A DNA stretch of 53,219 nt from Betaproteobacteria bacterium (GTDB lineage: Bacteria; Pseudomonadota; Gammaproteobacteria; Burkholderiales; SHXO01): NCBI GenBank assembly GCA_009693245.1, contig SHXO01000010.1, positions 1 through 53,219 on the forward strand, read 5' to 3'. Below the pieces are notes generated by a model, which saw only the letters and a program-made list of their open reading frames with translations, was not told the origin of the DNA and ran no database searches. The stretch's first letter is position 1. Each line of letters begins with the position of its first letter. Positions 10,985 to 51,713 of this stretch are shown here, in pieces. Both the position numbers and the translations under genes were made by a program.

Positions 10985-12221
10985 ATGCAGCTTGGCTTCT
11001 ACATCATTCTGGCGGCGCAGTTTTTTTCCGCCTTGGCGGATAACGCCCTTCTATTCGCGGCCATCGCCTTGCTGGCCGAGATCCACGCGCCAGATTGGCA
11101 AACGCCCGTGCTGCACATGTACTTCGTGTTCTCCTACATCGTACTGGCACCCTTCGTGGGGCCCTTCGCCGATGCCTTGCCGAAGGGGAAGGTGATGTTC
11201 ATCAGCAACGGCGTCAAGCTGGCCGGATGTCTCGCCATGCTGGCGGGGCCTGCATCCTTTGTATGCCTATGGCGTCGTGGGTATCGGGGCCGCCATGTAC
11301 TCGCCGGCCAAGTACGGAATCCTCACCGAGTACCTACCCGCCAGCAAGTTAGTGCTGGCCAATGTCTGGATGGAAGGGCTCACGGTGGCCGCCATCATCT
11401 TGGGCGCCATCGCGGGCGGCTACATGGTGACTCCCGCCTTCTCCTCCGCCCTGGGCTTCGCGCCTGGCATGTTGTGGCTGGATAGCGCACCGAAGATCGC
11501 GGTCGCCTTTATCGTCTTGCTCTATGCCGCCGCCGGCCTCATCAATATCTACATCCCTCGAGTGGCGCTCGATCACAAACTCCTGCGCAAGACCATCACC
11601 TACATCCTGCGCGATTACTGGACATGCTTCTGGCAATTGTGGCGCGACCCCCTCGACCAGATGTCGCTGGCGGTAACCATGATTTTTTGGGGCTAGGGGG
11701 CCACGCTGAGACTGATTGTGCTGAATTGGTCCGAAACCATCCTGGGCCTGGATCCGGCACGCGCCGCGCAGCTCACCGCCGTGGTCGCCGTGGGCATCGC
11801 GGCGGGCGCCGCCGTCGCGGCGAAAACAGTTCAGATCGATAAGACGGAGAAGATCTTGCCTGTAGGCGTCAGCGTGGGTATCACCGTGATGTTGATGGTA
11901 TTCGCCCGCGAGTGGTGGACGCTCGCCATCGGTCTTTTCATCATCGGCGGCATCGGAGGGTTCTTCGTCGTGCCCATGAATGCCCTGCTGCAACACCGCG
12001 GCCACCTCATCATGGGCGCGGGCCACTCCATCGCCGTGCAGAATTTCAACGACCATCTGGCCATCCTCGCCATGCAAGGCATGTACGCCGACATGCTCAA
12101 ATTGAACATACCGCTGGAAGTCATCGTGGTTTTCTTTGGCCTCATGCTGGCCGCTGTCATGCACTATCTTTGGCGAAGGCATGGGGCCAAGCCGTCCAGG
12201 CTGAGCGCCTCAGACGCCTGA
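10985..12221 (+). pseudogene. lplT: Lysophospholipid transporter LplT, interrupted by a frameshift and an amber codon
   Basis: The pieces together give about 411 residues of an MFS-type lysophospholipid flippase of the inner membrane, beginning MQLGFYIILAAQFFSALADN. The frame changes near 11250: the sequence ggggcctgcatcc fits the family (AGLHPLYAYGVVGIGAA) only if one c is removed. The second frame then stops at TAG 11694-11696 inside IFWG*GATLRLIV and continues in the same frame to a normal end. Both lesions fall inside conserved membrane segments, so the protein as written could not be functional. Either a pseudogene or two sequence errors. Confidence 0.88.
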
Positions 12222-12312
12222 GCCAAGGGCATCCGAGATTTTGGAGCGAGCCCCAGGTGCGGCACATGCTGGATGCCTGGGGAAGGAGCAGTGGCGCGCC
12301 CGCCGCTCGCAA

Positions 12313-14028
12313 TCACCCCCCGCCACGCAGCAACTTCCCAGGCAACGCCCCGGTCGCTTTGTCATTTTCAATGACGACTTGTCCCGAGACGATGGTCGCG
12401 GCATAACCCTTTGCCGTTTGCATTAGGCGGCGGCCGCCGGCGGGCAGGTCGTTCACGATGTACGGGGGAGAAAGCGAGAGATTGGCGTGGTCGATCACGT
12501 TGATGTCAGCCTTCATGCCGGGGGCGATCAAGCCGCGGTCCGTGAGGCCTATCAATTGCGCCGGCGCCCTGGTGTAGCGTTGCACGGCCAATTCTAGCGG
12601 CAGGCGTTCGCCGCGTGTTCGGTCTCGCGTCCAATGCGTCAGCAGATAGGTGGGAAAGCCGCCGTCGCAGATGGTGCCGCAATGCGCACCGCCATCGCCC
12701 AGACCCACCACGGTGTGGGGATGGCGCAGCATGGTAAAGGTGGAGTCGTAATTGAAGTCCGTGTAGTTGGCGGCGGGTGCGAACAATAGGGCTTGGCCTT
12801 CGCGTTCCAGTAGCAGGTCGTACATCAACGCCATGGGATCTTGGCCGGTGCGCGCCGCCACTCCGGCAACGCTCGCCTCGGGGGGCGGTTCATATTCCGG
12901 AGGATCGCCCAAGGGGAACACGCGATCGAGGCTGCCAAGGATATTGGCGACGAAAGCGGGAATGCGCCCGGGCAAGCTATCGAAGGGCTCGGCGAGAATG
13001 CGTTCGCGTAGCGTTGGGTCGCGCATACGCGCGACACGCTGCGCCAATGGCAAATGCGCGATTTCCACGTAGCTAGTTTTGGTCATGAAAGGATGTAGCG
13101 TCCCTTGCAGGCCCAGCACAAGTCCCACGGCGCGCGGCGCTACTTGGCCCTGTATCTGAAGTCCATCGGCTTGGGCCCGATCGATCAGCGCCAAGAGATG
13201 CCGCCATTGTTGCGGGAATTCGGCTCGCTGCACCAAGGTAAAGGAAAGCGGGCGTCCGCTCGCTTTCACGCATTCACGCAAGAGCGTGAACTCCTCGTCA
13301 ATGTTTTCAAAGTCGGAAAGAAGTTGTAGAACGCCTCGCCCGGCACGGCGCACGCCTTGCGAAATGGCCAAGAGTTCCTTGCCCGCGGCGCTGTAGTTCG
13401 GAACGTAATCGCCGCGCACGGTTTTATGCAAGATGGTTCGCGAAGTCGTGAAGCCCATGGCGCCCGCCTTGATGGCCTGCTCCGTGAGATCGGCCATGCG
13501 CTGCATGTCCTCCGCCGTGGCGGGTTCGCGCTTGGCACCGCGCTCGCCCATCACGTAGTAACGCAACGCGGCGTGGGGCAACTGCGCGCCAAGGTCCATG
13601 ATGCGCGGTTTGCCTTCCAGCGCATCGAGATACTCTGGAAAACTTTCCCAGGCCCAATCCACGCCTTCGGCGAGCACGCTACCTGGGATATCTTCCACGC
13701 CTTCCATCAACTCTATGAGAAATTCTTTCTGGCTGGCTTTCATCGGAGCGAAACCAACCCCGCAATTTCCCATGACGGCGGTGGTCACGCCATGCCAGCA
13801 ACTCGGTGTGAGCATGGGATCCCAGGTCGCCTGGCCGTCGTAATGGGTGTGTACATCGACGAAGCCCGGCGTCACCAGAAGGCCATCGGCGTTCAGCGTG
13901 CGGCGCGCGGCGCCCCCGGCTTTCCCCACCTCCACGATGCGGCCGTCCGCGATGGCGACGTCACCGGTGAAAACCGGCTTACCGGATCCGTCGGCAACGG
14001 TTCCTCCACGAATCAATATGTCGTACAT
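12313..14028 (-). CDS. Amidohydrolase family 3 protein, D-aminoacylase-like
   Basis: A 571-residue metal-dependent amidohydrolase of the N-acyl-D-amino-acid deacylase type. It opens with a small beta-sandwich (MYDILIRGGTVADGSG) and the first metal motif FVDVHTHYDGQ near residue 60, followed by GVTTAVMGNCGVGFAP, which carries the Cys ligand seen in D-aminoacylases. GDGGAHCGTICDGGF near residue 435 holds the late Asp. The C-terminal strand segment (APGMKADINVID) closes the sandwich. It may hydrolyse N-acylated D-amino acids or a related amide; substrate cannot be read from sequence. It converges on the broken lplT gene. Confidence 0.85.
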   Translation of the reverse strand: MYDILIRGGTVADGSGKPVFTGDVAIADGRIVEVGKAGGAARRTLNADGLLVTPGFVDVHTHYDGQATWDPMLTPSCWHGVTTAVMGNCGVGFAPMKASQKEFLIELMEGVEDIPGSVLAEGVDWAWESFPEYLDALEGKPRIMDLGAQLPHAALRYYVMGERGAKREPATAEDMQRMADLTEQAIKAGAMGFTTSRTILHKTVRGDYVPNYSAAGKELLAISQGVRRAGRGVLQLLSDFENIDEEFTLLRECVKASGRPLSFTLVQRAEFPQQWRHLLALIDRAQADGLQIQGQVAPRAVGLVLGLQGTLHPFMTKTSYVEIAHLPLAQRVARMRDPTLRERILAEPFDSLPGRIPAFVANILGSLDRVFPLGDPPEYEPPPEASVAGVAARTGQDPMALMYDLLLEREGQALLFAPAANYTDFNYDSTFTMLRHPHTVVGLGDGGAHCGTICDGGFPTYLLTHWTRDRTRGERLPLELAVQRYTRAPAQLIGLTDRGLIAPGMKADINVIDHANLSLSPPYIVNDLPAGGRRLMQTAKGYAATIVSGQVVIENDKATGALPGKLLRGGG

Positions 14029-14275
14029 GAGATGCGCATGAAATGTCGCTGGTGCTCACCTTATAGCACATTGGGAATCTCACGGCGGGCTGTTGAAACA
14101 CTTCTCGGAGAAATGGTCTATGATGGCTCAAGCCATTTTTATCGCTGGAACCGCAATTCGATTGGGCCGGGCACGCGAAGAAAGGTGGTTCGCGCGTGGA
14201 GACCGCGCGTCTGTGTTCGTCCGCGAGAAGGCCAGGAGCGGCGAATTCGTTGCCGGAAACTAAATGGAGGAAGAC

Positions 14276-15892
14276 ATGGCTAGTGCAACTCCCAACTTCG
14301 ATGCCGTTGTAATCGGCGCGGGATTTTCTGGCATGTACATGCTGAAATCCCTGCGCGACAAATTAGGCCTGAATGTGCGTGTTTTCTAGGCCGGCGACAC
14401 CGTTGGCGGTACCTGGTATTGGAACCGCTACCACGGCGCCCGCTGCGATTCCGATGCCTATATCTACTGCTTCACGTTCGGCAAGCAGATGCTGCAGGAG
14501 TGGGAATGGACGGAACGCTATCCCGAACAGCCCGAAATCCTGCGTTACCTGGAATATGTCGCCAAGCGCCACGATCTGAAGCGCAACATGCAGTTCGGCA
14601 CCCGCGTGACCGGTGCCGAATACGACGAGAACAACAATCTGTGGAGAGTGCACACCGACAAGGGCGACAATGTCACGGCCCGTTTCCTCATAGCGGCGGT
14701 GGGTAGCCTATCCACCACCAACATGCCGCAGTTCAAGGGACTGGAGAATTACAAGGGCAAGTGGTACCACACCAGCCGCTTTCCGCACGAGGGCGTCGAT
14801 TTCACCGGAAAACGCGTGGGCGTGGTCGGCACCGGAGCCACCGCGGCACAGGCCATCCCGGAAATCGCGCAGCAAGCCAAGCACCTCACCGTGTTTCAGC
14901 GCACAGCCAACTACTGTGTGCCAGCGCGCAACGGCAAGGTCGATCCCGAACTGGTGAAGGCTCGCAAGGCCGATTATGACGGCATCGTCAAGCGCACACG
15001 CGAGTCGTTCTTCGGCCAGGAGCATTACTTCATCCCGAAGTCGGCGCTGGAAGCCACGCCCGAGGAACGAGAACGCGAGTTCGACAAGCGCTGGGACGCG
15101 GGCGGCTTCGCCTTTTGGCTCGCCAACTACCAGGACATGTTCTTTAGCAAGGAAGCCAACGAACTATGCGCTGACTACATCCGGCGCAAAATCTTCAAGA
15201 CCGTGAAGGAAGCGGCCATCGCCAAGAAGCTCATCCCCAAGGGCCACTACTACGGCACCAAGCGCCAACCCCTGGACACGAACTATTACGAGACGTTCAA
15301 CAGGGACAACGTGCTGCTGGTCGATGCCACCATCGACGGCCCCATCGAGGAGATCACGGAGAATGGCATCCGAGCCGGGGGCAAGGAATACGAGCTTGAA
15401 ATCATCGTCTTCGCCACTGGATTCGACGCCATGACCGGTCCGCTGAAGGCGCTTAATCTCAAAGGCCGCGGTGGCCGCACGCTGGACAAGGAATGGGCGG
15501 ACGGCCCCCATAGCTACCTTGGCATCTCGGTCGCTGGTTTCCCTAATCTGTTCACCCTCACCGGCCCGCAAAGTCCGTCGGTGTTGACAAACATGCCGGT
15601 GGCGATCGAGCAGCACGTGGAGTGGGTTGCCGATTGCATCGACCACCTGAACAAGAATGAAAAGACCACCATAGAGGCCACTCCCGAGGCTCAGAACCAG
15701 TGGGTCGCGCATGTCAACGAGATCGTCAACATGACCCTGATGGTCAGCGCCAACTCGTGGTACATGAGCGCCAATATCCCCGGCAAGCCGCGCGCGTTCT
15801 TGCCGTATTTGGGACCCGAAGGGGTGGGCGGCTACCGCAAGAAGTGCGACGAAGTAGCGGCCAAGGGATATGAAGGATTCGCGCTCGCGTGA
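14276..15892 (+). pseudogene. Flavin-containing Baeyer-Villiger-type monooxygenase with amber codon 38
   Basis: A 538-codon frame for an FAD/NADPH monooxygenase of the cyclohexanone/4-hydroxyacetophenone monooxygenase group, which inserts oxygen next to a ketone. Visible are the FAD loop VIGAGFSG (residues 12-19), GGTWYWNRYHGARCD, a Baeyer-Villiger fingerprint variant YKGKWYHTSRFPH near 158-170 with Phe where Trp is usual, the NADPH loop VVGTGATAAQ near 183 and the late FATGFDAMTG. Codon 38 (14387-14389) is TAG, where the family has the acidic residue closing beta-strand 2 of the FAD fold (VRVF*AGD); one base change from GAG would explain it. ATG 14276 follows a good GGAGG. Translation would otherwise restart at 14489 without the FAD loop. 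Confidence 0.88.
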
Positions 15893-15995
15893 CTTGGGGA
15901 AGCGGGAGGAGGTGGCAAGGAGTAGGGAGGAGTAAGAACCTTAGGCCCAAGTCCCTAGTCCCGCGCAAATAGCATCCATGAACGGAGGAGACATC
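15893..15995. other. Purine-rich spacer between the monooxygenase and hydrolase genes
   Basis: A 103-base gap holding an AGG-rich run around 15898-15941. A strong ribosome-binding site (ggaggag, 15984-15990) serves the ATG at 15996. The spacing and shared direction suggest the two genes form one transcription unit. Confidence 0.4.
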
Positions 15996-17049
15996 ATGAT
16001 CGAAAACAGTTACTACTCGCAGGAAGTGCACGGCCCTTACGAGATGCACGACATCGGCGACCTGGCCCTTGAAGAAGGCGGCACCATCAGAGGCTGCAAA
16101 CTCGCGTACGCGACGTTCGGGACCCTCAATGCCGCCAAGGACAACGCCATTCTCATTCCCACTTGGTACTCAGGCACCAACAAACTCCTGGAACAGGCGT
16201 ATACCGGCAAGGGCCGCGCGCTCGATCCGGACAAATACTTTCTCATCATCGTCAACCAGATCGGCAACGGTCTCTCGACCTCGCCTCACAACACGCCGGC
16301 ACCGGGCGGCATGGGGAATTTTCCCCGCGTGCGCATCGGTGACGACGTGCGGGCGCAGCACAAGTTCATCACGGAGAAGTTCGACTTGACGAGCCTCGCG
16401 CTGGTGGTGGGCGGCTCCATGGGCGCGCAGCAGACCTACGAATGGGCCGTACGCTACCCTGACATGGTCAAGCGCGCCGCGCCCATCGCCGGCACGGCGA
16501 AGAACACGACCCATGATTTTTTATTCACCGAAACGCTGGTGGATGCGATCACCTCGGACCCCGGCTTCAATAAGGTGTTCTACAAGTCCTAGGCCGAGGT
16601 ACGCGAGGGCCTGCTGCGCCACGCCAAGATGTGGGCGGTGACGGGTTTGGAGCACGGAGTTCTTTCAGCAGAGCCGGCACAAGGCCCTGGGGTTTTCGTC
16701 CTTGGACGATTTCATCATCAACTTCATGAACGGTTATTTCAGCGTGATGGACCCCAACGATCTCCTCTGCATGGCTTGGAAATGGCAGCGCGGGGACGTC
16801 AGCCGCCACACCGGTGGCGACTTGAGAGCCGCGTTGAGCCGCATCAAAGCCAAGACCTTTGTCATGCCCATGACTTCTGATATGTTCTTCCCGCCGGCCG
16901 ATTGCCAGGCCGAGTGGCGGCTCATTCCCGATGCCGAGTTCAGGCCCATCGATACCATCGACGGCCATCTGGCGCTGTTCGGCGCCGACCAGAGCGCACT
17001 CGCTCAGATCGATAAACACCTGAAAGAGTTGCTCGCGGCAAAGGTGTAA
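15996..17049 (+). pseudogene. Alpha/beta hydrolase of the homoserine O-acetyltransferase (MetX) superfamily, interrupted twice
   Basis: About 350 residues when repaired. The fold and nucleophile elbow are clear: LVVGGSMGAQQTYEWAVRYP with Ser near residue 137, followed by the acid in TSDMFFPPADC and the His in IDGHLALFG. It resembles MetX-like hydrolases rather than true MetX. A TAG at 16590-16592 interrupts YKS*AEVREGL, and near 16645 gggttt needs one t fewer to continue as WSTEFFQQSRHKALGF. ATG 15996 is chosen over 15978 because of the GGAGGAG just before it. It follows the Baeyer-Villiger monooxygenase, so ester hydrolysis after oxygen insertion is a reasonable but unproven role. Confidence 0.82.
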
Positions 17050-18262: not shown

Positions 18263-21078
18263 GTGACACGAATCGCATTAGCGGCGATCCTTTGCGTGCT
18301 ATTCGGATTCATCCGTACGAGCCATGCCATCGGCCCCGATCCGTCGGATACATAGCGCACGGCGCACAGCACGCACTTCATCATCCACTTCGAGGAAGGG
18401 CACCGGCCCTACGCGCGGAAGGTGCTCGGCATCGCCGAGAAAGTCCATGGCCCGGTCACCACGGCGCTGGGCTGGGAGCCCTATGAGCTCACCCACATCG
18501 CGCTCATCGCCAACATCGATCTTGCCAACGGCTACGCCACTCCCCTGCCCTTCAATCGCATGGGCATCTTCCTCACGCCTCCGGATTTCAGCGGGGATTT
18601 GGTCCGGGGCGATTGGCTGGAGTCGGTGATTCATCACGAATTCACGCACATCGTTCACCTGGACAAGGGCAGCAGGGCGCCAGGGGTCTTGCGCTATATT
18701 TTCGGCCGCTTTCCTTGGCTCTATCCCAATTTATTTCAACCGCGCTGGCTGGTGGAAGGTTTGGCCACTTACTCCGAGAGCTTGCCGGAACAAGGCGTAG
18801 GCCGTTTGCGCGGCCCGCTATTCGAAGCTTGGATGCGCGACGAGCGCAAACGCGGATTCCGCAGCCTGCGCGAACTCAATGCGGACGGGCGCAATCCTCC
18901 CTTGTTCAACGCCTATCTTTACGGGGCTTACTTCTACGACTTCCTCGCGCGGCGCTACGGCAAGGAGTCGGTCCCCAAGCTAGTGGAAAGTTACAGCGGA
19001 AATTTACTGCCCTTCCGCGTGCACAGCATGCCTTTTGATGCGACCGGGAAGATGATGGATGAACTTTACGCGGAGTTTCTCCAAGACCTTACCCAGGAGA
19101 CCGATAACCGGGCAGCGCCAGTCCTCGCCCAACAGGAAGTGGCAGGAGAACCCGTGGGACCGCCCTTGCGCTAGATCTGGGCCGTGGCGGACGGCAAGGG
19201 CACGAACAGCGGCGCGCTCTACGCAATCGCCGATGACGGCATCACCGAGCCCCGCTTGCAGCGCTACGCGGCGGACGGTGGCGTTCGGACCTTGGCGCGT
19301 TCACGCATTGGCACGCGTATCGATGTACGCGGTGATGGCGTGGTGCTCGCTAGCCAGATGGAAATCTGCAATGGCCACGATGTTTACTTCGATCTGTATC
19401 GCATCGAAGCCGGTGGCGCGAATCTGGCCGGGCCAAAGCGCCTCACCCAATGCGGGCGTTACTTTCGTGCCGTCTGGGGGAGCGATGGCAGCGCCATCTT
19501 CGCGCTCAAGCATGTGCCAGGAAAGCAGCACTTGGTGCGCCTGGACGAGCGCGGAGGCAATGAGCAAGTGCTATTGCATGGCACGGACGATGTGCAATGG
19601 ACCGATCTCGCTGCCATGCCTGGCGGACAGCGCATTGCCATTACGGGTAAGCGCGAAAATAAATTCGTTTTGTACGAATTCTATTTGGCCCTTCAATCCT
19701 TGCAAGCGCGCCACGCCGGGCCTGTCATGCACTCGCCGCACTACCAAGGCGGCACACTATATTTCCTATCGGGCGGCGGGAACGTATACAACGTCTGGCG
19801 TCTCACGCCGCCAGGATTACTCGAAAGAGTAACCCACGCGCACACGGCGGTGACGGCTTTCGGCGGCGTGGATGACAGCGGGCAGCTAGCACTCGCAACG
19901 CTTTCCCAGGGCCAATTCCGCATGCACCGGCTGCGCGGTGCCAACCCCTTGGAGACATCGCAGGCGCAGGCTGAGGTGGCCTCCGCCACCCCCACGCCCC
20001 CCCCACGCTTGCCATGGAAGGCGAGACTAGCTATAGCGCTTTGTCCACCTTGGCACCCAGGTCGTGGTTTCCCCTCTTGTTCGCGGACCGCAACACCTTC
20101 GGGCTGGGTGTGACCACCTTTGGCGGCGACGCACTAGACTGGCATCGTTACACGTTGGCGCCTCTCTATGAATTCACCCAGCAAGAACCCCTCGGTCTGT
20201 TCGAGTACGTGTATCACGACCGGCATTACTTGACACTGGATCGCAGCCTGGCGGTGACCCAGTGGCGCACGCAAGATAAACGCGACAAGGCAACCGAGTA
20301 CGAGCGATCTCTGCAAGCACAATGGGTTTCGCTGGGCCGCTTCATTCGCTGGGATTACCGCATGAACGCCGGCATTGGCGCCGCCATCGAGCAAAAGGAC
20401 CGAGTCATTGTCGATGGCCCCACGCATGAGTTGGACGACGAGCGCCTCGCCGCGGGCATGCTGGAATACGAAAGCCTGTATCGCAACATCTATTCGGAAG
20501 ATCCTTCGCACGGATTGCGTGCACGCTTCCTGTACGAAACCTACCGGCCCTTCAAGAGGGGTACGCGCTTCGATGGCAATGTATCGAGAGTTGACTTGCA
20601 AGCTTACTTTCCCATCGGCAAAACCGTGCTCGCCTTGCGTGGAGTGGAGGCTCGCGCCACGGGTAGAACGGAGGATTTCGAATTGGGAGGAAGTTTCGGC
20701 GAGTTCGCCGCCGAAGCACCCAGATTGAACGAGCGCCGCTTGGCACTGCGGGGCTACGATCGCGGTATCGCGGCGCTTCGTGGACCCGGTGCGCGCCTCG
20801 GCAGCGTGGAGTTGCGTTTTCCCATCGCGGATATCGACCGCCACTTCATGGTTCCGCCCATCGGCATCAACCGGCTTTCAGCCGCGGTGTTCTACGACAT
20901 TGGCCGCGTATCGGGCAATGGCGCGGCGAACGAGTACCGGCAAGGCGTGGGCATCGAAGTGCTGGGCGAGGTCAAGCTAGGATATCTTTTCTACCTGCCG
21001 GTATGCGTGGGTGTCGCGCACGGCCTGGATGATTTGGGCGATACGCAAGCCTATCTTCGGATCGGGCGCAGTTTCTAA
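18263..21078 (+). pseudogene. Secreted gluzincin metallopeptidase / beta-propeller / beta-barrel protein, interrupted three times
   Basis: About 938 residues when joined. A signal peptide (residues 1-22, starting VTRIALAAIL) is followed by a gluzincin peptidase domain with the zinc motif HHEFTHIVH near residue 121 and the downstream WLVEGLATY Glu. Then comes a WD40/TolB-like propeller region, and from about 20010 a C-terminal part rich in alternating strands ending YLRIGRSF with a terminal Phe, as in outer-membrane barrels. TAG codons lie at 18353-18355 and 19172-19174, both in the main frame. The frame then shifts at a run of eight C (around 19997-20004): nine would restore it. The GTG start has GGGGAG upstream. 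Probably surface-located; substrate unknown. Confidence 0.75.
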
Positions 21079-23321: not shown

Positions 23322-24474
23322 TTAGCGCGCCTTCGCGAGGCGTTGCGCATTGAGTACCAGCATCGCTTGCTGAAGCTGGCAGTCCTCCCGGTCTCGCTTG
23401 GGCCACTGGCTCATATCCAGCGCGACCGGCGTTACGCCTTCCAGCTTCAAGACACAGGCCGAATCCGGCATGGTGATGGTGGAATAAATCACGGCCGATA
23501 ACCCCTCGCTCTTATCCATTGAGGGCCGCGCATGGCGTGCGATGGAGACATCCGGGTTCACCCCTTGGCCGTCGACGCGGTGGCCCTTTGTGGTATAAAA
23601 ATAAGCGGTGGTGTACTTGACGGCCGTGTTGTCAGGTAAGGGAATAATGGTCTGTACCGTGCCATTGCCATAGGTTTTCGTACCCACCAACACGGCGCGG
23701 CCGTGATCTTGCAAGGCTCCGGCCAGAATTTCGGAGGCCGATGCCGAAACTCTTGTTGACCAATACGGTGATGGGCAACGTCCTGATTTGGGCAGGCAGC
23801 CCCGCGAGAAAATCTTCCTCGTCCTGGCCTAGGTAATAATCGGGATGAGCGCGCATTTCCCGCTTGGAATCCGGATCCTCGCCGTCCATCGAAACAACCA
23901 TGGCACCGGCGGGGAGAAACACCGCAGCCACGCCCACGGCCGAGCGTACCAGTCCTCCCGCATTGTCGCGTAGATCCAGAACCAAGCCTGCAAGGGGTTT
24001 CGAGCTATCCCGCGCGAGATGTTGGAGCGCCGCGATGACCATCTGGGGAATTCTTTCGTTGAAGGCATGAATGCGAATATAAGCGCGCGCGTTGGGCAGC
24101 AGGCGGTAGGTCACGCTGTCGCGATCGCTCGACCGGAAATCGCGTTGCAGATCGCGGAAGGCCGCGGCGTCGAAGTACTCCGCGTAGGCATCGCTCCCCT
24201 TGGGCAAGTTGTCCTTGACCTTGTCCACCATTTCCTCGCTCATGGCGCAAAGTTTCGGGTCCACGGTACGCAGCATCACGAGGAACTTGTGGGAGGAGGC
24301 ATTCTTCAGGTTCTCGCATTCGCTATCGAGCGCGCTAGCCGGTAAAGCGAAGGCCGCGAACAACACCGTCACCAAGCACCCATGCAGGCGCCGGGAAATG
24401 GAAATTGCGCTTGAATGAGCATTGTTCATAAGAGCATTGTGCATGGGACTTTTGTACATCGAAGTTTTGTGCAT
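23322..24474 (-). pseudogene. S41-family C-terminal processing peptidase-like protein, frameshifted at the active site
   Basis: About 383 residues when joined. The signal sequence ends near LPASALDSE. The S41 domain follows with LVLDLRDNAGGLVRSAVGVA and ITVLVNKS, after which the frame shifts near 23740: removing one t from agttt gives SASASEILAGALQDHG, the strand and helix with the nucleophilic Ser, then GTKTYGNGTVQTI. The PDZ domain usual in CtpA looks absent or very short. The proposed ATG at 24474 has GAGG upstream and begins four tandem 15-base units each with an in-frame ATG. As written the product would be truncated at its catalytic centre. Confidence 0.85.
24415..24474 (-). repeat. Four tandem 15-base units, each opening with an in-frame ATG
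   Basis: On the minus strand the first 60 bases of the S41-like gene encode MHKTS, MYKSP, MHNAL and MNNAH: four successive units of exactly five codons, each ATG-[C/T/A]AC/TAC-AA. The DNA units share atg.acaa at the same offset. Any of the four ATGs could start translation upstream of the signal peptide. Confidence 0.75.
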
Positions 24475-24812
24475 CAGGCCGCCTCTTCCCAGCGGTTCTC
24501 GCCAGGTTATTGTCAGGGATCGATAGGGCTGTTTCCGCAATTTATGTGCGTCTGGCGCGGGTTCGCATCCACTGCGCACCGATCTTACTACAGGCCTGAA
24601 TTGGCAAGGGATTAGAGGCCAGCGATGGCGGAAATGGAAGACTTGTTCACGATCGCCCCGTGCCAAGTGGCGACCGCTCATCAAGCCCCTGCTCGGATAT
24701 TGACTGCGCCAACCCAGGTTTGCAGGCAAACAAATCCACCGGCTTGTTTCTTGCCACCGTACCGGCGATGCATTCATGCGAGCGATGTCGAATGACGAAA
24801 GGACTCACGAAA
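24475..24812. other. Divergent intergenic region of 338 bases
   Basis: Open frames here lack similarity and good start signals. The region must hold promoters for the leftward S41-like gene and the rightward protease. I see no strong sigma-70 pair, terminator or clear repeat. Confidence 0.4.
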
Positions 24813-25466: not shown

Positions 25467-25477
25467 CGGCCGCGGTC

Positions 25478-26287: not shown

Positions 26288-26315
26288 GGTGTGCTCCAGA
26301 TAGAGTGCGAAGCGA

Positions 26316-36687: not shown

Positions 36688-37947
36688 ATGAGTAGAGATC
36701 AAGAAGGACTGGTCGGAAAATCCCCGTTGGCAGGGCGTACGCCGGGGATATAGCGCGGAGGATGTCTACCGGCTTCGCGGCACCCTGCAAATCGAGCATA
36801 CCCTGGCCAAACGCGGGAGCGAAAAACTGTGGCGTTTGCTGAAGGAACATCCATACATCAATTCCCTGGGCGCCATGACTGGCAACCAGGCGATGCAGCA
36901 GGTCAAGGCAGGGTTGAAGGCCATCTATCTCTCGGGGTGGCAGGTGGCGGCCGATGCCAACGACGCCTACCAAATGTACCCGGACCAATCCCTCTATCCC
37001 GTGTCCAGCGTCCCTTCGGTGGTGCGCAAGATCAACAATACCTTTATCCGCGCCGACCAGATTCACCATTCCGAAGGCAAAGACACCATCGACTGGTTCG
37101 CGCCCATCGTGGCGGATGCCGAAGCGGGCTTCGGAGGCGTGCTCAACGCCCATGAATTGATGAAGCACATGATCGAGGCTGGCGCCGCCGGCGTGCACTT
37201 CGAAGACCAACTGGCCGCGGCCAAGAAATGCGGGCACATGGGGGGAAGGTTCTCGTACCCTCTCAGGAAGCCGTGCAGAAATTGATTGCCGCCCGACTTG
37301 CCGCCGACATCATGGGCGTCCCCACCGTTTTGTTCGCCCGTACGGATGCTGAAGCGGCCAATCTGGTGACGTCCGACGTGGACGAAAACGACAAACCCTT
37401 CCTCACAGGCGAGCGTACAGCCGAAGGCTTTTACCACTCCAAGAACGGGTTGGGCCAAGCGATCTCGCGCGGCTTGGCCTACGCGCCCTATGCCGATCTG
37501 ATCTGGTGCGAAACCGGCAAGCCCGATCTGGAATTCGCCAAGAAATTCGCGGACGCCATTCACGCGGTGTTCCCCGGAAAGATGCTGGCCTACAACTGCT
37601 CGCCCTCCTTCAACTGGAAGAAGAATCTGGACGACGCCACCATCGCCAAGTTTCAGCGCGAGTTAGGCGCCATGGGCTATAAGTTCCAGTTCATTACCCT
37701 TGCCGGCTTCCATGCGCTGAACTATTCCATGTTCGAACTCGCGCGCGGCTATGCGAGCGAGAACATGACTGCCTATGTTCGCCTTCAGCAGGCCGAATTC
37801 GCCGCGGAATCCGTGGGCTACACGGCCACCAAGCATCAACGCGAAGTCGGCACCGGCTACTTCGACGAAGTCACACAGGTTTGCCAAGGCGGCCAATCCT
37901 CCGTGACCGCGCTTACTGGATCCACCGAAGAAGAGCAGTTCGTCTAG
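36688..37947 (+). pseudogene. aceA: Isocitrate lyase, frame disrupted near the start and after the signature motif
   Basis: The glyoxylate-shunt enzyme cleaving isocitrate to succinate and glyoxylate. ATG 36688 gives MSRDQE as in relatives, but the conserved continuation [20 protein letters not shown] lies in another frame with an upstream stop and no start codon, so bases are missing or extra near 36705. The frame then runs well ([25 protein letters not shown]) until a six-G run near 37240; seven would continue as [15 protein letters not shown]. The remainder is well conserved to STEEEQFV. The active-site Cys motif KKCGH is intact just before the shift. Such a conserved enzyme with an intact aceB next door makes sequence error worth excluding first. 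Confidence 0.9.
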
Positions 37948-38045: not shown

Positions 38046-39665
38046 GTGAGCGCACCTCTGTCTCACCCGCCAGGCGTCCAAGTCCTCGGCACCATCACCC
38101 CCGAGTACGCACATATCGTCACGCCGGAAGCGCTCGCTTTCTTGGCCAGACTTCACCGTAATTTCGACAAGCGCCGGCTCGGGCTTCTCGCCCGCCGCGT
38201 TGCCCGCCAAGCCGAAATCGACGCCGGAGAGTTGCCCGATTTTCTGCCTGAGACCGCGGACATTCGCGCCGCGCAGTGGAGCGTGGCTCCCGTTCCAAAG
38301 GATTTGCAAGACCGCCGTGTGGAAATTACAGGCCCCACTGATCGCAAGATGGTGATCAACGCGCTCAATTGCGGCGCCAACATGTTCATGGCGGATTTCG
38401 AGGACTCCAGCACTCCCACCTGGGACAACCAGGTGCAGGGCCAGATCAACATGCGCGACGCCATCGCGGGCACCATCGGCTTCACCAACTCCGAGGGAAA
38501 GCACTACAAACTCAACGACAAGGTTGCCACCCTGCTCGTACGCCCGCGCGGATGGCATCTCCCAGAGAAACACGTCCTCGTGGACGGAGAACCCATGTCA
38601 GGTTCTCTTTTCGATTTTGGCTTGTATTTTTTCCACAACGCCAAGACACGAGCCGCCAAGGGCTCGGGTATTTATCTATATCTACCCAAGATGGAATCCC
38701 ATCTTGAAGCACGCCTGTGGAACGACGTCTTCGTGTCTTCGCAGAAGGAGGTGGGCGTGCCACAAGGCACCGTGAAAGCCACTGTCTTGATCGAGACCAT
38801 TCTGGCCACCTTCGAGATGGATGAAATCCTCTACGAATTGCGCGAACATTCCGCCGGCCTCAACTGCGGCCGCTGGGATTACATCTTCAGCTGCATCAAG
38901 AAACTCAAGAATCATCCAGATTTTGTTTTGGCCGACCGCGGGCAGGTCACCATGACCAGCCCCTTCATGCGCGCGTATTCGCTGCTGCTCATCAAGACCT
39001 GCCACCGCCGCAACGCTTTTGCCATGGGCGGCATGGCAGCGCAGATTCCCATCAAGAACGATCCGGCCGCCAACGATGCTGCCATCGCCAAGGTGCGTGC
39101 CGATAAAGAGCGGGAGGCCAATGATGGCCACGACGGCACCTGGGTAGCGCATCCAGGCTTAGTCGCTGTCGCGAAGGAGGCTTTCGACGCCGTGATGAAG
39201 ACGCCCAATCAGATCCACCGCAAGCGTGATGACGTGGCTAGCACCGCCAAGGATCTGCTCGATTTTCAGCCCAAGGCGCCCATCACCGAACAGGGACTGC
39301 GCACCAACATCAACATCGGCATCCAATACATGGGCGCCTGGCTAGCCGGCACGGGCTGCGTTCCCATCTTCAATCTAATGGAAGACGCCGCCACGGCGGA
39401 AATCTCGCGCGCCCAGATCTGGCACTGGATTCGTAGTCCGAAGGGCGTTCTCGACGACGGCCGCAAAGTCACCAAGGATCTGTTCAAATCCCTGGTGCCG
39501 CAAGAGCTGCGGCGCGTGCGGGAAATCCTTGGCGACAAACAGTATGCCGCCGGAAAGTACGAAGTAGGCGCGCAGATGTTCGACGAACTCACGTGCAAGG
39601 ACGAGTTCGTCGAGTTCCTCACCTTACCCGCCTACGACTACGTTACGGAGCACGAGCACCGGTAG
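38046..39665 (+). CDS. aceB: Malate synthase A
   Basis: A 539-residue malate synthase (A isoform, about the size of the E. coli enzyme), condensing glyoxylate and acetyl-CoA. Conserved stretches are FMADFEDSSTPTWDNQ, RPRGWHLPEKHV, the active-site VLIETILATFEMDEILYELR and GRWDYIFSCIKK. A GTG start at 38046 is chosen: AGGAG lies about eight bases upstream and relatives begin here; the open frame extends back into aceA. Reading frame intact, unlike aceA. Confidence 0.95.
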   Translation: MSAPLSHPPGVQVLGTITPEYAHIVTPEALAFLARLHRNFDKRRLGLLARRVARQAEIDAGELPDFLPETADIRAAQWSVAPVPKDLQDRRVEITGPTDRKMVINALNCGANMFMADFEDSSTPTWDNQVQGQINMRDAIAGTIGFTNSEGKHYKLNDKVATLLVRPRGWHLPEKHVLVDGEPMSGSLFDFGLYFFHNAKTRAAKGSGIYLYLPKMESHLEARLWNDVFVSSQKEVGVPQGTVKATVLIETILATFEMDEILYELREHSAGLNCGRWDYIFSCIKKLKNHPDFVLADRGQVTMTSPFMRAYSLLLIKTCHRRNAFAMGGMAAQIPIKNDPAANDAAIAKVRADKEREANDGHDGTWVAHPGLVAVAKEAFDAVMKTPNQIHRKRDDVASTAKDLLDFQPKAPITEQGLRTNINIGIQYMGAWLAGTGCVPIFNLMEDAATAEISRAQIWHWIRSPKGVLDDGRKVTKDLFKSLVPQELRRVREILGDKQYAAGKYEVGAQMFDELTCKDEFVEFLTLPAYDYVTEHEHR

Positions 39666-39678: not shown

Positions 39679-42204
39679 TCAAGGCGCGTTGCTCAATTCG
39701 ATGCTCAGATCCCGCAAGTGACTAAGCGTGTCGGAATCCGTGGTGCGCTCGATGGCCTTCTCCAATTTCGCGCGTAGATGCGAAAGGCCCGAGCGCAACG
39801 CCGCACGGTACTCGCTGGGTCGTACCTTTGCTTGCCTGTATTGCTGCGCCACTTCGGCTAGCGCGGAAGTCACGTTGCGGCTTAGCATGCGCCCGCGCAT
39901 GATTTCGCTATCCAGCAAGCGGTGCTTGATGTCGCGCTCGATCCCATCGGATTCGCTGGCCGGATCGCTCACGTTACCCACGGATACCAGCAAGCGCGTG
40001 ACGTAGTTGCGCTGCAAATCGCGCCGGAATAACTCCACCGTGGGGTTTTTGGCGTCAATCTCCTGGAACAAGACGTTGTTGAGATCCTTCAGCATGTCGG
40101 TTCCGCTGTAACCCTTGCCGCCGTTGGCCTGCTTGGCCTCTGCCATGCGCTGGATCACGGCGGGGCGCAGCAACCGGGATAAGAGCTGCACGTTCGATCC
40201 TTGCAAGGGATCGGAGTGTCCTTGCGCAAAAATGCGGCGTCTCACTTCGGGGTCCATGAGCTTTCGAGGCACGGTAAAAGCCCGGTCGATGAGGAATTTG
40301 ACCGCCACCTTCTGCCGCTCCGCCGGTACTGGCGTGTAGGGTGCATCGCCCCGCCCCGCCAGGGAGCGCACTTCCTCCACGCCGTCCACGATCTTCGCCA
40401 CCGCGCCCAACTCCCGGAAACGCTGGTTGACCAAGGCGTGATATTGCTCCGCCAGCTTGGTGTAATCCGATCCCAGGGACGACGTGGCCGGCAGCAAGTA
40501 GGGCATCACCCTGTCTATGTTGCGCAAACCCAGATCCGCCGCCTCGATGGGGTCGCCCCCGATCACGTTTTCGTTCACCGTCGGATCCAAGGCGGCGCTG
40601 GAATCCTCTCCGCCGAAGCGCAACATGGGATCCTTGATTTGTTTGGCCGCCATTTCGTCCAGCACCGGCCACTCGCCGTCGCAAGTCATCTCGTTACCGA
40701 AGTCTCGGTAACCCCACTCGATGGCGAAGTAATCGTAGGGACCGAACTTGGGCATCAGGCCCGCGTCGTCCCCCGGCTGCGCCACGTAGTTGAAGCGTGC
40801 ATAGTCCATGATGGACGCCGAGGTGCCCCACTTCTTGGTCCATTCCGGATCACGCAATTGCGCCACGCTATAGGCGGAGTGAGCCTTGAAGTTATGCCGC
40901 AACCCGAGGGCATGGCCCACCTCATGGGCAACGATGTAAGCGAGCAACTACCCCATGAGATCATCGGGCAGCGGCAGTTTGCGCGCGCGCGGATCGAGTG
41001 GCGACACTTGGGTGAAGTACCAAGTCTCCGCCAGTTTCAACACGTTATGCCAAAAGATGGCATGGGATGAAATCACCTCGCCGCTACGCGGATCCACCAC
41101 CGCCGGCCCCATGGCGTTTTGCCGGCCACTGGGCGTCCAGCGAATCACGGAATAGAGCACGTCCTCCGGGTCCCAATCAGGGTTCTCTTTCTCGGAGGGC
41201 GCGTCGTAAGCTTGGATGGACTTGAGAAATCCCGCCTTCTCGAACAGCGGTTGCCAGGATTACACACCCTTCTTGATATAGGGCCGCCATTTATCGGGCA
41301 CCTCATGGCTGATGTAGAACACGATGGGTTTCACCGGCGGCGATAGCTCCGCTTCGGGCAATAGCTTCTCCAAGCGGTAACGGGCGATGTATGCCCGGCG
41401 CACCTTTCCGTGCTCGTTGGTGCCGTAGTCATCGAAGGATTCGGCGAAGTAACCCACGCGCGGATCGGCATAGCGGCCTTTCATCGGCTCCTCGGGAAGC
41501 AGCAACATGCTGGTATGAAACACGAACCCTAGGGTGGTCGGAATGGGGTCCTCGCCCTCGGGCGTCGGCTTGTTCAATTCCTTGGGATCAGGCACCCAAG
41601 TTTGATAGAAGCGCACCTCGACATTCTTCGGAAACGCCTTCACGGTCTCGATATAAGAGCGCTTCTGGTCGATACCGTTCATGCGTAAGTGCTGCTTGAA
41701 CTCGCGCCCGAATCCGTCCGGAACATCGGTAGCGAACAAGCCCGTCACATCTATGATGGGAGCACCATCGTCCCCTTCCGACACCGCCTCGAAAGCCTTG
41801 ATCACGGTACGAAGCGAAGCCTGCTCCACCCCGAGCTGCAAATTCGCCATGTTGGGTGCCCACATCTCGTAACGCACGTTTTCCAGGTAGACTTTATTGC
41901 CTCGCCTTACCCAGCGCACCACACGGCTGTCGACCACCGATCCCGGCGCCACGAAATCGCTTCCCGTGGAAAGGGCCGCGAATTCGGTGTTGATCAACAT
42001 GTCCTTGTTCAGCTTGTCGAGCGGTATTTCGAAGAGGACGTGATCGCAGGCGATGTGGGCATTGAACAGGCCCTTGATGGTACGCACCGTCTGTGGCATG
42101 TTCGGGCGGCAGGGTGCGACCTCGGCCGCCTTCATCGCCCAAGCCGTGGACGACAAGCCCAAGAACAGTAACGTTGCCCAGTGAATGAGTCCTACACGCT
42201 TCAT
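39679..42204 (-). pseudogene. Large exported zinc metalloprotease (DUF5117/DUF4953-like), two in-frame stops
   Basis: An 841-codon frame. A signal peptide (MKRVGLIHWATLLFLGLSS, cleaved near AWA) is followed by a long N-terminal beta-rich region and a metzincin-like zinc site, IVAHEVGHALGLRHNFKAH near residue 424, with SIMDYARFNY downstream as the expected Met-turn region. TAA at 41260-41262 interrupts KKGV*SWQPLFEKAG and TAG at 40948-40950 interrupts DDLMG*LLAYIVAHEVGH, nine codons before the zinc motif. Flanking frames continue in phase, so each is a single-codon lesion. AGGAG five bases before the ATG supports the start. Role unknown; family members are usually secreted or periplasmic. Confidence 0.85.
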
Positions 42205-42455
42205 AACCACTCCTGTATCTTTTCGTGCGGCAAAATCCCGGCTGCAACCGCCGCCGGGAAACCCGTTCGTCCAACAATACGGCTAAATGGGTTCGGTGGA
42301 TTCGAGGGTCTAGATATCATTTCGCTTAATCTACATCTGATTTTAGTCGTTCGGGACATCCCTCACACGGCGCGATTAGAATCTGCCGTGCAAGTAAATC
42401 ATTATTCTCTAGCTTTGGCCACTCAATGCCCAAACCGTTTGGATAACCCTCACCC
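42205..42455. other. Divergent gap between the metalloprotease and nudJ
   Basis: 251 bases without a credible gene. AT content rises around 42320-42420, where promoters are most likely, but I cannot assign boxes with confidence. Confidence 0.3.
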
Positions 42456-42905
42456 ATGATCTGGAAACCTCACGTCACCGTGGCAGCCGTCGTCGAGCAG
42501 CGGGGAAAATTTCTCCTGGTAGAGGAGGAAACCGAGGATGGAGTTCGCGTCAACCAGCCCGCCGTCCATTGGGAACCTTATGAGAGCCTGACCGAGGGCG
42601 CCGTGCGCGAAGCGTTGGATGAAACCGGGCGCCACTTCGCCCCCACCCACCTACTAGGGGTTTACAACTGGAGCCGTCCCGCGGGAGACACCACCTATCT
42701 TCGCTTTGCCTTCGTAGGCACAGTTAGCGAACCTGTTCCCGGCCATAAACTTGACGAGGACATCCTGCGAACTATCTGGATGGCGCCCGAGGACATCGCC
42801 CGCGACGCCGCGCGCCATCGCAGCCCGTTGGTGCTTCGCTGCGTGCAAGACTATCTCGCGGGCATTCGCCATCCGCTCAACCTTCTCACTCATCACTCCT
42901 TATGA
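42456..42905 (+). CDS. nudJ: Nudix hydrolase, NudJ-like, with an altered Nudix box
   Basis: A 149-residue Nudix-fold protein. [19 protein letters not shown] and the late [17 protein letters not shown] match NudJ, the phosphatase acting on nucleoside and thiamine pyrophosphates, and NudJ commonly precedes mnmA. The catalytic box is unusual: [20 protein letters not shown] replaces the expected AGHLEPGES, losing both glycines, and the REALDETG segment has Asp for one metal-binding Glu. Activity may be reduced. Its stop overlaps the mnmA ATG (ATGA). Confidence 0.85.
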
Positions 42906-44005
42906 CCGGCCTCCTTGGCCCCATGCCCGCCGCCATCCACGCTAACGCGAAACGCGTCGTGGTGGGGATGTCGGGCGGCGTCGATTCGTCGGTGGCGGCC
43001 TGGCTGCTAAAGGAGCAAGGCTTCGAGGTGACTGGACTCTTCATGAAGAACTGGGAAGACGACGACACGGACGAGTTCTGCACCGCGCGGGAAGATCTGA
43101 TCGACGCCGTGTCCGTGGCGGACCGAATCGGCGTCGAGATCGAGGCGGTCAACTTCTCCGTGGAGTACAAGGAACGCGTATTCAGCAATTTTCTCGCGGA
43201 ATACCAAGCCGGCCGCACACCCAACCCGGACGTGTTGTGCAACTCCGAGATCAAGTTCAAGGCCTTCCTGGATCACGCCATCGGCATGGGCGCCGGTCGC
43301 ATCGCCACCGGCCACTACGCTCGCGTACGCGAGCGCGATGGGGCCTTCGAGTTGTTGCGCGGCCTCGATACCTCCAAGGACCAAAGCTATTTTCTCCACC
43401 GCTTGAACCAAGCACAACTGTCGCGCACCTTGTTTCCGGTGGGGGAACTGAAGAAAAGCGAAGTGCGCGAGATCGCCCGGCGCATCGGACTAGCCAATCA
43501 CGCCAAGCGCGACAGCACGGGCATATGCTTCATCGGCGAGCGCCCTTTCCGGGAATTTCTCATGCGCTACCTCGCACCCAAGCCGGGGCCCATGCAAACG
43601 CCCGAGGGAAAAACCGTCGGAGAGCATCAAGGCCTGATGTATTACACCATAGGCCAGCGGCAGGGCTTGGGGATTGGCGGTGCGGGAGAACCCTGGTACG
43701 TAATCGATAAGGACATGCCGCACAATCGCCTTATCGTCGCCCAAGGCCACGATCACTGTGCCTTGTACCGCACCCGCCTATTTGCCGGCAAACCGAGTTG
43801 GATCTCGGGCTTTGCCCCCGATGGATCTCGCGCGTACGGAGGCAAGACACGGTACCGGCAAACCGATGCGCCTTGCCGGTTCATGGAAGCCTCAGCGGAT
43901 AGTTTTTCCCTGGCGTTCGACGCGCCTCAGTGGGCTATCACGCCGGGCCAATCCGCGGTGTTGTACGACGCGGACGTGTGCCTAGGAGGCGGAATCATCA
44001 GTTGA
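42902..44005 (+). CDS. mnmA: tRNA-specific 2-thiouridylase
   Basis: A 367-residue enzyme adding sulfur to U34 of tRNAs for Lys, Glu and Gln. The PP-loop [14 protein letters not shown] is near residue 22, the first catalytic Cys in [13 protein letters not shown] near 110 and the second in [13 protein letters not shown] near 207. Translationally coupled to nudJ. It converges on gltX with a one-base gap, which leaves no room for a terminator between them. Confidence 0.96.
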
Positions 44006-44006
44006 T

Positions 44007-45404
44007 TCAGGGCAGCCCTTCGATCTCGCCTTGCAAGCGTTTCAGCACCTCGTCGCGGCCCATCAATTCCAAGGTCGCATCGATGGAAGGCGTTTGAGTG
44101 GTACCCGTTAACATCACGCGCAAGGGCATCGCCACCTTCGGCATCTTCACGCCATGGGCCTCCACCACCGCCTTGATCGCCGGCGCAATGGACTGCTTGT
44201 CCCATGAAATGGCGGCCAAGCGGGCTTGCAGGTCTGTCATCACGGCTCGCAATCCCAGCCAATAGTGCTGGGCCTTGAGTTCCGCGGAAGCGGAGATGGG
44301 ACGATAAAAGTACACCGCCGCATCACCCAGTTCCACGAGAGTACTTGCGCGCTCCTTAAGTAACGCCATCACCTTGGGCAATGCCGGGCCACGGGAGGTA
44401 TCGCACCCCGCCCGCTGAACGAATTTCTCGGCCATCCGCGCCAAGCGCTCGTTGTCCGCGCTCTTCATCCATTGCGCATTGACCCAGCTTAGCTTCTCCG
44501 GATTGAACTGCGCGGCCGAACGGCTTACGTGCTCCATATCGAACCAGTCCACCAATTGGTCCATGGAAAAAATTTCCTCGTTGCCGTGAGACCAGCCCAG
44601 GCGCGCAAGGTAGTTGAGCAATCCCTCGGGCAGATAACCCTCCTCCTCGTATTGCATCACGCTCACGGCACCGTGGCGCTTCGATAGCCGCTCGCCATCG
44701 GCACCGAGAATCATGGGAATGTGCGCAAAGAACGGTAGCTGCGCACCCAGGGCGCGAAAAATATTCACTTGGCGCACCGTGTTGTTCACGTGATCGTCAC
44801 CGCGAATCACGTGGGTGATGTTCATATCCAGATCGTCCACCACCACGCCAAAATTGTAGGTGGGCACCCCGTCGGTACGCATGATAACCAGGTCGTCCAG
44901 CTCCGCGTTGTGCACGCTGATAGGCCCCTTCACCATATCGCCGAAGGCGGCCTCCCCGCTATCGGGATTGCGAAACCGAATCACCGGTTCCACTCCAGCA
45001 GGCGGCGTCTGGCCGCGTGCATTCTCCGGCCGCCAGCGTCCGTCGTAGCGCGGTTTTTCGCCTCGCGCGCGCTGCTGCTCGCGCATGGTGTCCAACTCTT
45101 CACGGCTAGCGTAGCAACGGTAGGCGTGGCCTCGGTTGATCAAATCCTCCGCGGCCTTCGCGTAGCGGTCCAACCGCTGCATCTGGTAGAAGGGGCCCTC
45201 GTCATAGCCGAGCTTTAGCCATCGCATGGCATCGAGGATGGCCTGCGTGGAATCCCCGGTGGAACGCTCCCGGTCCGTATCTTCGATACGCAGAATGAAC
45301 TTGCCTCCATGCTTGCGCGCGTAGGCCCACGAAAACAATGCCGTGCGGGCACCGCCGATATGCAAGTACCCCGTGGGGCTAGGAGCGAATCTGGTACGAA
45401 CCAT
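44007..45404 (-). CDS. gltX: Glutamyl-tRNA synthetase
   Basis: A 465-residue class I synthetase. The HIGH motif is in [20 protein letters not shown] (residues 7-26) and the KMSKS equivalent in [10 protein letters not shown] near 241. Length is standard and the frame intact. It is divergent from the tRNA-Val gene and has no obvious operon partner. Confidence 0.96.
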
Positions 45405-50783: not shown

Positions 50784-50801
50784 TCGCCGCATGGCGGCCG
50801 C

Positions 50802-51713
50802 TCAATGGCACACGGCTTTTCCTTGATCGAGGACATTACCATCGTTCACTGCCATGAACGCCCATTCGTACTCTCCCGCCCGCAAAGCCAACCTCATAAC
50901 ACCAAAGGAACCGCCGACTTTTGCCTCGCTATGGGGATGCGGGTAGAGATAGGGGCCAAGCATTGCGCCACCGGTCCCGGCGACGAATTGCCGGATGCCA
51001 TGCGCCGCATCGAGCTGGCCTTCTTTGTTAAGTGGCGCGAGACGCTCGTAATCGTGATCATGACCGCTGAGCGCGACATCCGCTACCGCATCGTGGAGGA
51101 TACTCCAAAGATTTCTCAGCTTGTTGTTGTTACCGTGCCAGCCATAGGTAAATCGAGGGTGATGAAAAAAGGCAAGGACACACTTGGCACGATGCGTGGC
51201 CAAGTCCGCCTTGAGCCAGATCTCCTGAGTCTTGCCTAACGGTGCGTTGACGATGTTGCTATTAAGCGCAACGAGGTGCCAGCTACCAAGGTCGAAACTG
51301 TAAAAACCAGATCCTGCCGGTCCCGCGCGCTCGCCCCAATAGTCGTAATACGGTTTCGCTCAGTTCGTGTTGTATTCGTGATTTCCCGGCACGGGACGCG
51401 TGCGTTGTTTGAACCTGCCCCAGGTGGGCTCGTAGCAGCGCTGGAATTCCACGGCGCGGCCGTTGGGATAAACCAGGTCACCCAGCACCAACACCGTTCC
51501 TGGGATGGATTCAACAAGTTTCGCCGTCGCTTCAGCCGGCGTTCCCACGAAACTTCCGGAACCACACTCGCCGATATCTCCGGCGGCAATGACGATTTCT
51601 ACCTCCTGAGATACCGGCTTCGCGCCTAGTGCACTGTGCCACGGTTGCGCGGCCACCAGTCCGAGCACCACCACCGACAATGCAGTTCGGGTTGTTGTCC
51701 AATTTCTTATCAT
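50802..51713 (-). pseudogene. Exported metallophosphatase, one in-frame TGA
   Basis: A 303-codon calcineurin-like phosphoesterase. A signal peptide (MIRNWTTTRTALSVVVLG, cleaved near SALGA) is followed by the metal motifs AAGDIGECG, VLGDLVYPNG, PGNHEYNT, FFHHPRF and SGHDHDYERL, all in order. TGA at 51360-51362 falls directly after NHEYNTN and before AKPYYDYWGE; relatives often have Gly there, and GGA to TGA would be one change. The frame continues in phase. The start ATG overlaps TGA of an upstream out-of-frame remnant as ATGA. Confidence 0.85.

What the first reader, a model, noticed from the sequence alone, without database searches (positions are those of the whole stretch)
10985..51713. 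About 14 in-frame stops and one-base shifts concentrated in dispensable genes
Eight recognisable genes (lplT, BVMO, MetX-like hydrolase, gluzincin/barrel, S41 peptidase, aceA, large metalloprotease, metallophosphatase) carry single-codon stops or single-base shifts, while roughly 13 kb of likely essential genes (dxs, ispA, folE2, clpA, icd, gltX, mnmA, alr) carry none. If errors were random I would expect several in the essential set. Several stops are one G-to-T change from the residue expected (GAG to TAG, GAA to TAA, GGA to TGA). That favours real decay with a mutational bias over random sequencing error, but two shifts are in homopolymers, where errors are common.
Basis: partly seen in the sequence, partly recalled or inferred. 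Interest (0 to 1): 0.65.

Follow-up and report, generated by a model that had tools for sequence, protein, structure and literature searches.

The report
Broken accessory genes in bacterial contig
Eight genes on this bacterial contig really are interrupted by stop codons or reading-frame shifts that intact relatives lack, most likely because this bacterium is losing genes it no longer needs; this is an ordinary process, and only the raw sequencing reads could finally rule out errors.

Summary
Frame-aware alignment to intact homologues confirms 14 lesions (8 in-frame stops, 6 shifts) in 8 genes: lplT, a BVMO, a MetX-like hydrolase, a gluzincin/barrel protein, an S41 peptidase, aceA, a DUF5117/DUF4953 metalloprotease and a metallophosphatase. 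Twelve genes I called core (14.0 kb) carry none: P=0.009 by lesion, 0.04 by gene, a post hoc split. Only 2 of 26 runs of six or more identical bases coincide with a shift; a C8 in radA does not. The mix of stops and shifts is unlike a published error catalogue. Real pseudogenisation is most likely. lplT, a positional orthologue beside alr, has excess amino-acid change. aceA, BVMO, metalloprotease and metallophosphatase show none, so those losses are recent or, less likely, errors; MetX and the gluzincin are equivocal and S41 is untested. A G-to-T mutational bias is not established. Genome-wide reduction is not shown: other contigs hold some broken genes (glk, mscL, an acyl-CoA synthetase), but my scan there was near its false-positive background. 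Ordinary gene decay; notable mainly because the only aceA found in the genome is broken beside an intact malate synthase.

The parts
10985..12221 (+). lplT (lysophospholipid transporter) pseudogene: shift 11243-11246 and TAG 11694-11696
   Evidence: 6 of 6 homologues agree on both lesions; 24 of 25 genomes searched, own included, match; excess amino-acid change; alr lies beside lplT in 5 of 7 homologue loci, G002 included
14264..15892 (+). Baeyer-Villiger/FMO-type monooxygenase pseudogene: TAG 14387-14389 at a Glu shared by 6 of 6 homologues
   Evidence: open 85%-identical homologue in G019 followed by the MetX-like gene
15978..17049 (+). MetX-like alpha/beta-hydrolase pseudogene: TAG 16590-16592 and shift 16638-16647
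18284..21078 (+). gluzincin/barrel protein pseudogene: TAG 18353-18355, TAG 19172-19174, shift 19973-20015 beside a C8 run
   Evidence: homologues in 41 other of 369 class genomes, most listed open frames ~900-1000 aa; alignments to 7
23322..24375 (-). S41 peptidase pseudogene: shift 23738-23748 just before the SASASEI stretch; PDZ stretch missing
   Evidence: both halves hit Peptidase_S41; alignment to one G002 homologue
36688..37947 (+). aceA (isocitrate lyase) pseudogene: shift just after the start codon (~36692) and shift ~37240 in a G6 run
   Evidence: both halves hit ICL; sequence read
39679..42210 (-). DUF5117/DUF4953 metalloprotease pseudogene: TAA 41260-41262 and TAG 40948-40950
50802..51713 (-). 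metallophosphatase-like pseudogene: TGA 51360-51362
   Evidence: 7 of 7 homologues span it
51532..52251 (-). remnant of a flavin oxidoreductase (profile positions 2-84 of 342 only)
24660..36374 (.). intact block: aspartyl protease, folE2, dxs, ispA, xseB, Rieske protein, rhodanese, DUF2784, clpA, icd; seven of these ten are syntenic with G002
38046..39665 (+). aceB (malate synthase), intact next to the broken aceA
42456..45404 (.). intact nudix, mnmA and gltX

Best explanation
These are real pseudogenes, probably of mixed age. One genome of a betaproteobacterium-like lineage is losing mostly accessory functions through single nonsense mutations and small indels, partly by slippage in G/C runs, while genes under strong selection are purged of such changes. 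lplT has been broken long enough to collect extra amino-acid changes; aceA, BVMO, the metalloprotease and the metallophosphatase have not and were lost recently. Shown: the lesions and the intact homologues. Inferred: that the lesions are fixed in the organism and inactivate the products.
For: 14 lesions against homologues. 5 of 8 broken genes carry two or more lesions; 14 random lesions would hit 11.6 genes on average, P(8 or fewer)=0.008, or 0.042 if confined to non-core genes. None in 12 core genes, P=0.009 by lesion, 0.040 by gene. Of 26 runs of six or more identical bases in the window, two sit at shifts; those in radA (C8), dxs, clpA, icd and gltX do not. lplT: 31 of 226 otherwise invariant columns changed versus 1-10 of 196-205 in each of 6 homologues; 40 versus 13 and 38 versus 12 lineage-specific changes against G001 and G002, P=0.0003 with four outgroups; it is a positional orthologue (alr beside it in 5 of 7 loci) and monophyly with G001 and G002 is not rejected (AU P=0.37), with branch 0.71 versus 0.35 and 0.45 under that constraint. 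8 stops to 6 shifts fits natural pseudogenes (131 of 346 single-lesion Salmonella pseudogenes are premature stops; PMC2916853, section read) better than an error catalogue in which most corrections were shifts or large deletions and hit rpoB, rpoC, rplC, thrS and dnaG (PMC2330054, first part of one section). BVMO and MetX, open neighbours in G019 at 85% identity, are both broken here.
Against: No reads were available. aceA, BVMO, metalloprotease and metallophosphatase show no excess change, and MetX only with 1 of 6 outgroup choices (P=0.027). The gluzincin's long branch is not clean evidence, since it is the outermost sequence in its tree and L275 may not be a valid outgroup. Genome-wide excess is not shown: homologue scan 6 of 100 genes on other contigs versus 12 of 202 in isolates and 8 of 198 in G002, and two of the six are false calls on inspection. 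A synteny split gives Fisher P=0.41.
Confidence: 0.77

Rival explanations
1. Consensus or assembly errors: substitution and indel miscalls in a fragmented assembly created the stops and shifts.
For: 130 contigs point to a draft assembly; two of six shifts lie in runs of six or more; most tested broken genes show normal constraint.
Against: Nonsense changes are 3.2% of substitutions in these genes, so 8 stops by error would imply about 250 miscalled bases over all genes (my arithmetic), yet no core gene is hit; long homopolymers in core genes are in frame; completeness 97.02%; lplT has excess changes while BVMO, 2 kb away, has none.
Confidence: 0.12
2. Strain mixture: the assembly shows minority pseudogene alleles from a population where intact alleles dominate.
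For: Lesions without relaxed constraint are what short-lived polymorphisms look like; [quoted passage not shown]
Against: Two or three lesions per gene in 5 of 8 genes. Contamination of 0.03% does not measure strain mixture.
Confidence: 0.07
3. Functional recoding: stops are read through (amber suppression) or frames recovered by slippage, so the genes still work.
For: 6 of 8 stops are TAG; BVMO, metalloprotease and metallophosphatase show no relaxed constraint; readthrough of in-frame stops has been argued for many bacterial genes (PMC7918605, abstract and section 2.1).
Against: TAG is expected for 51-53% of random nonsense changes (6 of 8 has P=0.145 at 0.5) and TAG ends 91 of 245 intact predicted genes. 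The residues at the stops differ (Glu, Trp, Ala, variable). Six shifts need another mechanism. In the rows listed the only internal stop is a TAG in this genome's own metalloprotease paralogue; G002's BVMO is in two pieces. My alignments used stop-free frames by design, so they do not test conservation of the stops.
Confidence: 0.04

Closest known systems
Young bacterial pseudogenes (Salmonella, PMC2916853; abstract and one section seen)
   Same: Single nonsense codons and short indels inactivate otherwise recognisable genes; stops and indels both common
   Different: 346 of 378 Salmonella pseudogenes have one inactivating mutation; here 5 of 8 have two or more, and no conspecific strain was available to date them
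Sequence errors in a finished genome (Vibrio fischeri, PMC2330054; abstract and first part of one section seen)
   Same: Split ORFs that relatives carry whole
   Different: There most corrections were shifts or large deletions and hit essential genes; here 8 of 14 are stops and core genes are spared
In-frame stops with possible readthrough (PMC7918605; abstract and section 2.1 seen)
   Same: In-frame stops in genes under purifying selection
   Different: There the stops studied are shared by orthologues; here no shared stop was seen, and shifts come with them

Membership tests
bacterial pseudogene (gene decay) | frame disrupted relative to intact homologues | tested here: met
   14 lesions in 8 genes; S41 rests on one homologue
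bacterial pseudogene (gene decay) | disruption absent from close relatives | tested here: met
   aceA and lplT open in G001 and G002; metalloprotease open in G001, no match in G002 and G003; the other five could be compared only with more distant homologues
bacterial pseudogene (gene decay) | relaxed constraint after inactivation | tested here: inconclusive
   met for lplT; gluzincin and MetX equivocal; not seen for aceA, BVMO, metalloprotease, metallophosphatase; S41 not tested
bacterial pseudogene (gene decay) | no functional product | not testable with these tools
   no expression data
consensus/assembly error | lesions independent of gene importance | tested here: inconclusive
   0 of 14 lesions in 12 core genes, P=0.009 by lesion, 0.040 by gene, but the split is post hoc; synteny split P=0.41
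consensus/assembly error | homopolymers generally misread | tested here: not met
   2 of 26 runs of six or more in the window sit at a shift
consensus/assembly error | reads disagree with the consensus | not testable with these tools
   no reads
amber readthrough/recoding | TAG no longer a general terminator | tested here: not met
   TAG ends 91 of 245 intact predicted genes in the sample
amber readthrough/recoding | full-length product made | not testable with these tools
   no protein data

The most novel reading that the evidence does not exclude
The stops are tolerated rather than dead: six of eight are amber, several of these genes show no relaxed constraint, and inefficient amber readthrough in this lineage keeps low levels of full-length BVMO, metalloprotease and hydrolase, so they are throttled genes rather than pseudogenes.
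Probability: 0.04. Interest if true: 0.6.

Novelty: new member of a known kind. Interest (0 to 1): 0.22.

Why it matters
It gives a checked list of broken genes in a lineage for which no named near relative was found, and a warning for metabolic inference: annotation by domain hits alone would credit this genome with a glyoxylate shunt, although its only detected isocitrate lyase is broken twice. It also shows how lesion clustering, homopolymer controls and lineage-specific substitution counts can help to separate decay from error without reads, and where they cannot.

Tried and rejected
A frame-shift gene-finding HMM trained on the genome found 4 of the 6 window shifts and made 15 shift calls in the other 366 kb sampled. 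At least two of the 15 are ordinary gene overlaps by Pfam (M20/GGDEF, CoA-binding/GST), so it gives no genome-wide rate. By that measure the window exceeds the rest only weakly (P=0.031 if 8 of the 15 are real, 0.177 if all are).

A homologue-based lesion scan had a high background (isolates 12 of 202 genes, G002 8 of 198), and its window figure (5 of 15 broken) is biased because I had fetched homologues of the broken genes on purpose; without those loci it is 0 of 10 for the window and 6 of 100 elsewhere. Looser versions were dropped because low-identity and antisense alignments made false lesions. Of the six elsewhere, glk and mscL are supported by split Pfam hits; two on C8 are neighbouring branched-chain amino-acid transporter genes, not broken; two stay unclear.

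dN/dS by Nei-Gojobori is near saturation for the pairs at hand and was not used as a test. Terminal branch lengths were not used alone, because lplT and the gluzincin are outermost in midpoint-rooted trees; for lplT I checked position and topology, for the gluzincin I could not. Plasmid searches gave homologues of the BVMO (368 records, best 57%) and the metallophosphatase (11 records) and none of the gluzincin. The one genome-contig scan gave dxs relatives, best 73% (a Nitrosomonas MAG); the window's own record may be left out there.

Full report
What the window is. The window is contig C10 (53,219 bp) of a 3.00 Mb draft genome in 130 contigs, completeness 97.02%, contamination 0.03%. Its dxs is nearest to betaproteobacteria among the loci returned (best 73%). 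Three same-genus genomes, G001-G003, were shown. Eleven window genes between 24.7 and 44.0 kb are syntenic, inverted, with G002:C2:234.5-251.1 kb.

Lesions. I aligned each damaged gene to intact homologues with a script that allows frame shifts. All 14 lesions are there: 8 stops and 6 shifts in 8 genes (codons re-read; coordinates in the parts table). Open frames in other genomes are longer: 84 of 150 order genomes, this one included, match the aceA piece, and among the others with E below 1e-80 the open frames are 335 aa or more apart from one of 173, against 263 here; the metalloproteases of the other genomes listed have open frames of 849-1007 aa, against 422 here; most gluzincin frames listed are 900-1000 aa. 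Weakest support: S41 (one homologue at 41%) and the shift next to the aceA start (3 of 6 homologues). Two further damaged features are the missing PDZ stretch of the S41 gene and a flavin-oxidoreductase remnant.

Chance and error. In a table of 40 genes and 48.8 kb of coding sequence, 14 random lesions would hit 11.6 genes on average; 8 or fewer has P=0.008, and no lesion in the 12 genes that I called core (14.0 kb: etfA, etfB, radA, alr, folE2, dxs, ispA, xseB, clpA, icd, mnmA, gltX) has P=0.009, or 0.040 counted by gene. I chose that list after seeing the data, and several members are not strictly essential. Splitting instead by synteny with G002 (11 backbone genes, 1 broken; 29 others, 7 broken) gives P=0.41. 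Homopolymers: of 26 runs of six or more, 24 lie in listed genes and two lie at shifts; C8 in radA, G7 in the glyoxalase-like gene and C6 runs in dxs, clpA and icd lie in open frames. Published sequencing errors in V. fischeri were mostly shifts and large deletions and hit rpoB, rpoC, rplC, thrS and dnaG, unlike this set.

Age of the losses. Constraint was tested on seven read-through genes; S41 was not tested. lplT has 31 changes at 226 otherwise invariant columns (its 6 homologues: 1-10 of 196-205) and about three times the lineage-specific changes of G001 or G002 (P=0.0003 with four outgroups, 0.013-0.031 with one). This assumes inheritance with the genus: alr lies beside lplT in 5 of 7 homologue loci, G002 included, though not within the fetched flank of G001, and monophyly with G001 and G002 is not rejected (AU P=0.37), although the best tree does not show it. 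The gluzincin has the longest branch (1.86 against at most 0.87) and more lineage-specific changes in 4 of 5 comparisons at P<0.05, but it is the outermost sequence of its tree and its homologues come from outside the order, so this may be phylogeny rather than decay. aceA, BVMO, metalloprotease and metallophosphatase show no excess in any comparison; the metalloprotease has fewer changes than G001's (76 versus 110, P=0.015). MetX reaches P=0.027 with one of six outgroup choices. So one gene looks decayed for some time, two are equivocal, and four were lost recently or, less likely, are miscalled.

Which genes. aceA and lplT are open in G001 and G002, so their loss is specific to this genome among those three. 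The gluzincin piece has no match in the 24 other order genomes searched, but matches genomes of other orders. BVMO and MetX lie side by side in G019, of another family, at 85% identity and open, so here a two-gene cassette is broken in both members. Five other BVMO-family matches in this genome have open frames. The metalloprotease has a paralogue on C3 with a TAG and a 320-aa frame. One aceA match was found in this genome, the broken one, while malate synthase next door is intact.

The rest of the genome. Broken genes exist elsewhere: glk (two Pfam halves in different frames), mscL and an acyl-CoA synthetase (each split by a stop). One of the 14 AMP-binding rows listed for this genome (of 19 matches) has an internal stop, and none of its 10 GTP_EFTU rows does. 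But the scan of other contigs was near its false-positive background, so I do not claim genome-wide reduction. Nor is the genus otherwise clean: a BVMO of G002 is broken too.

Mutational bias. In 4 of 8 stops the homologues' residue is one step from the stop: BVMO Glu (6 of 6), metalloprotease Glu (4 of 5), metalloprotease Asp or Glu (2 and 3 of 5), gluzincin Trp (6 of 6). Three fit G-to-T and one G-to-A; expected G-to-T share 15-25%, P=0.013-0.052. The lplT stop (Ala in 5 of 6 homologues) is two changes away, and the other three are variable. Suggestive at most.

Papers. Searches. For PMC2916853 I saw the abstract and one section; for PMC7918605 the abstract and section 2.1; for PMC2330054 the abstract and the first part of one section.

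Verdict. Ordinary pseudogenes, probably of mixed age, confidence 0.77; the remainder is split between error, strain mixture and readthrough, as scored in the rivals.

Noticed in passing
window 49627-49797 (upstream of the acyl-CoA dehydrogenase ending at 48420): Intergenic repeat with units of ~95 bp, often two adjacent; 21 DNA matches in the own genome, the window's own included, and copies in L099, L101, L108, L109 and L110; no Rfam match there. Function unknown.
   Followed up: partly
L207:3667-5041 (G002:C2:103667-105041): A BVMO of the genus-mate G002 is also broken: matched pieces in frames of 171 and 241 aa, with a TGA at a Trp position and a shift.
   Followed up: partly
L094 ~18023: Glucokinase gene split by a frame shift on contig C1; both halves match PF02685.
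   Followed up: partly
L101:9403-9867 and L101:10508-12235: mscL and an acyl-CoA synthetase, each split by one in-frame stop, within 3 kb on contig C8.
   Followed up: partly
L110 ~9414: Caspase-domain gene with a possible frame shift next to a G8 run.
   Followed up: no
L103:12707-13561: Protein with a C-terminal PEP-CTERM motif.
   Followed up: no
window 51532-52251: Flavin oxidoreductase remnant overlapping the start of the broken metallophosphatase.
   Followed up: partly
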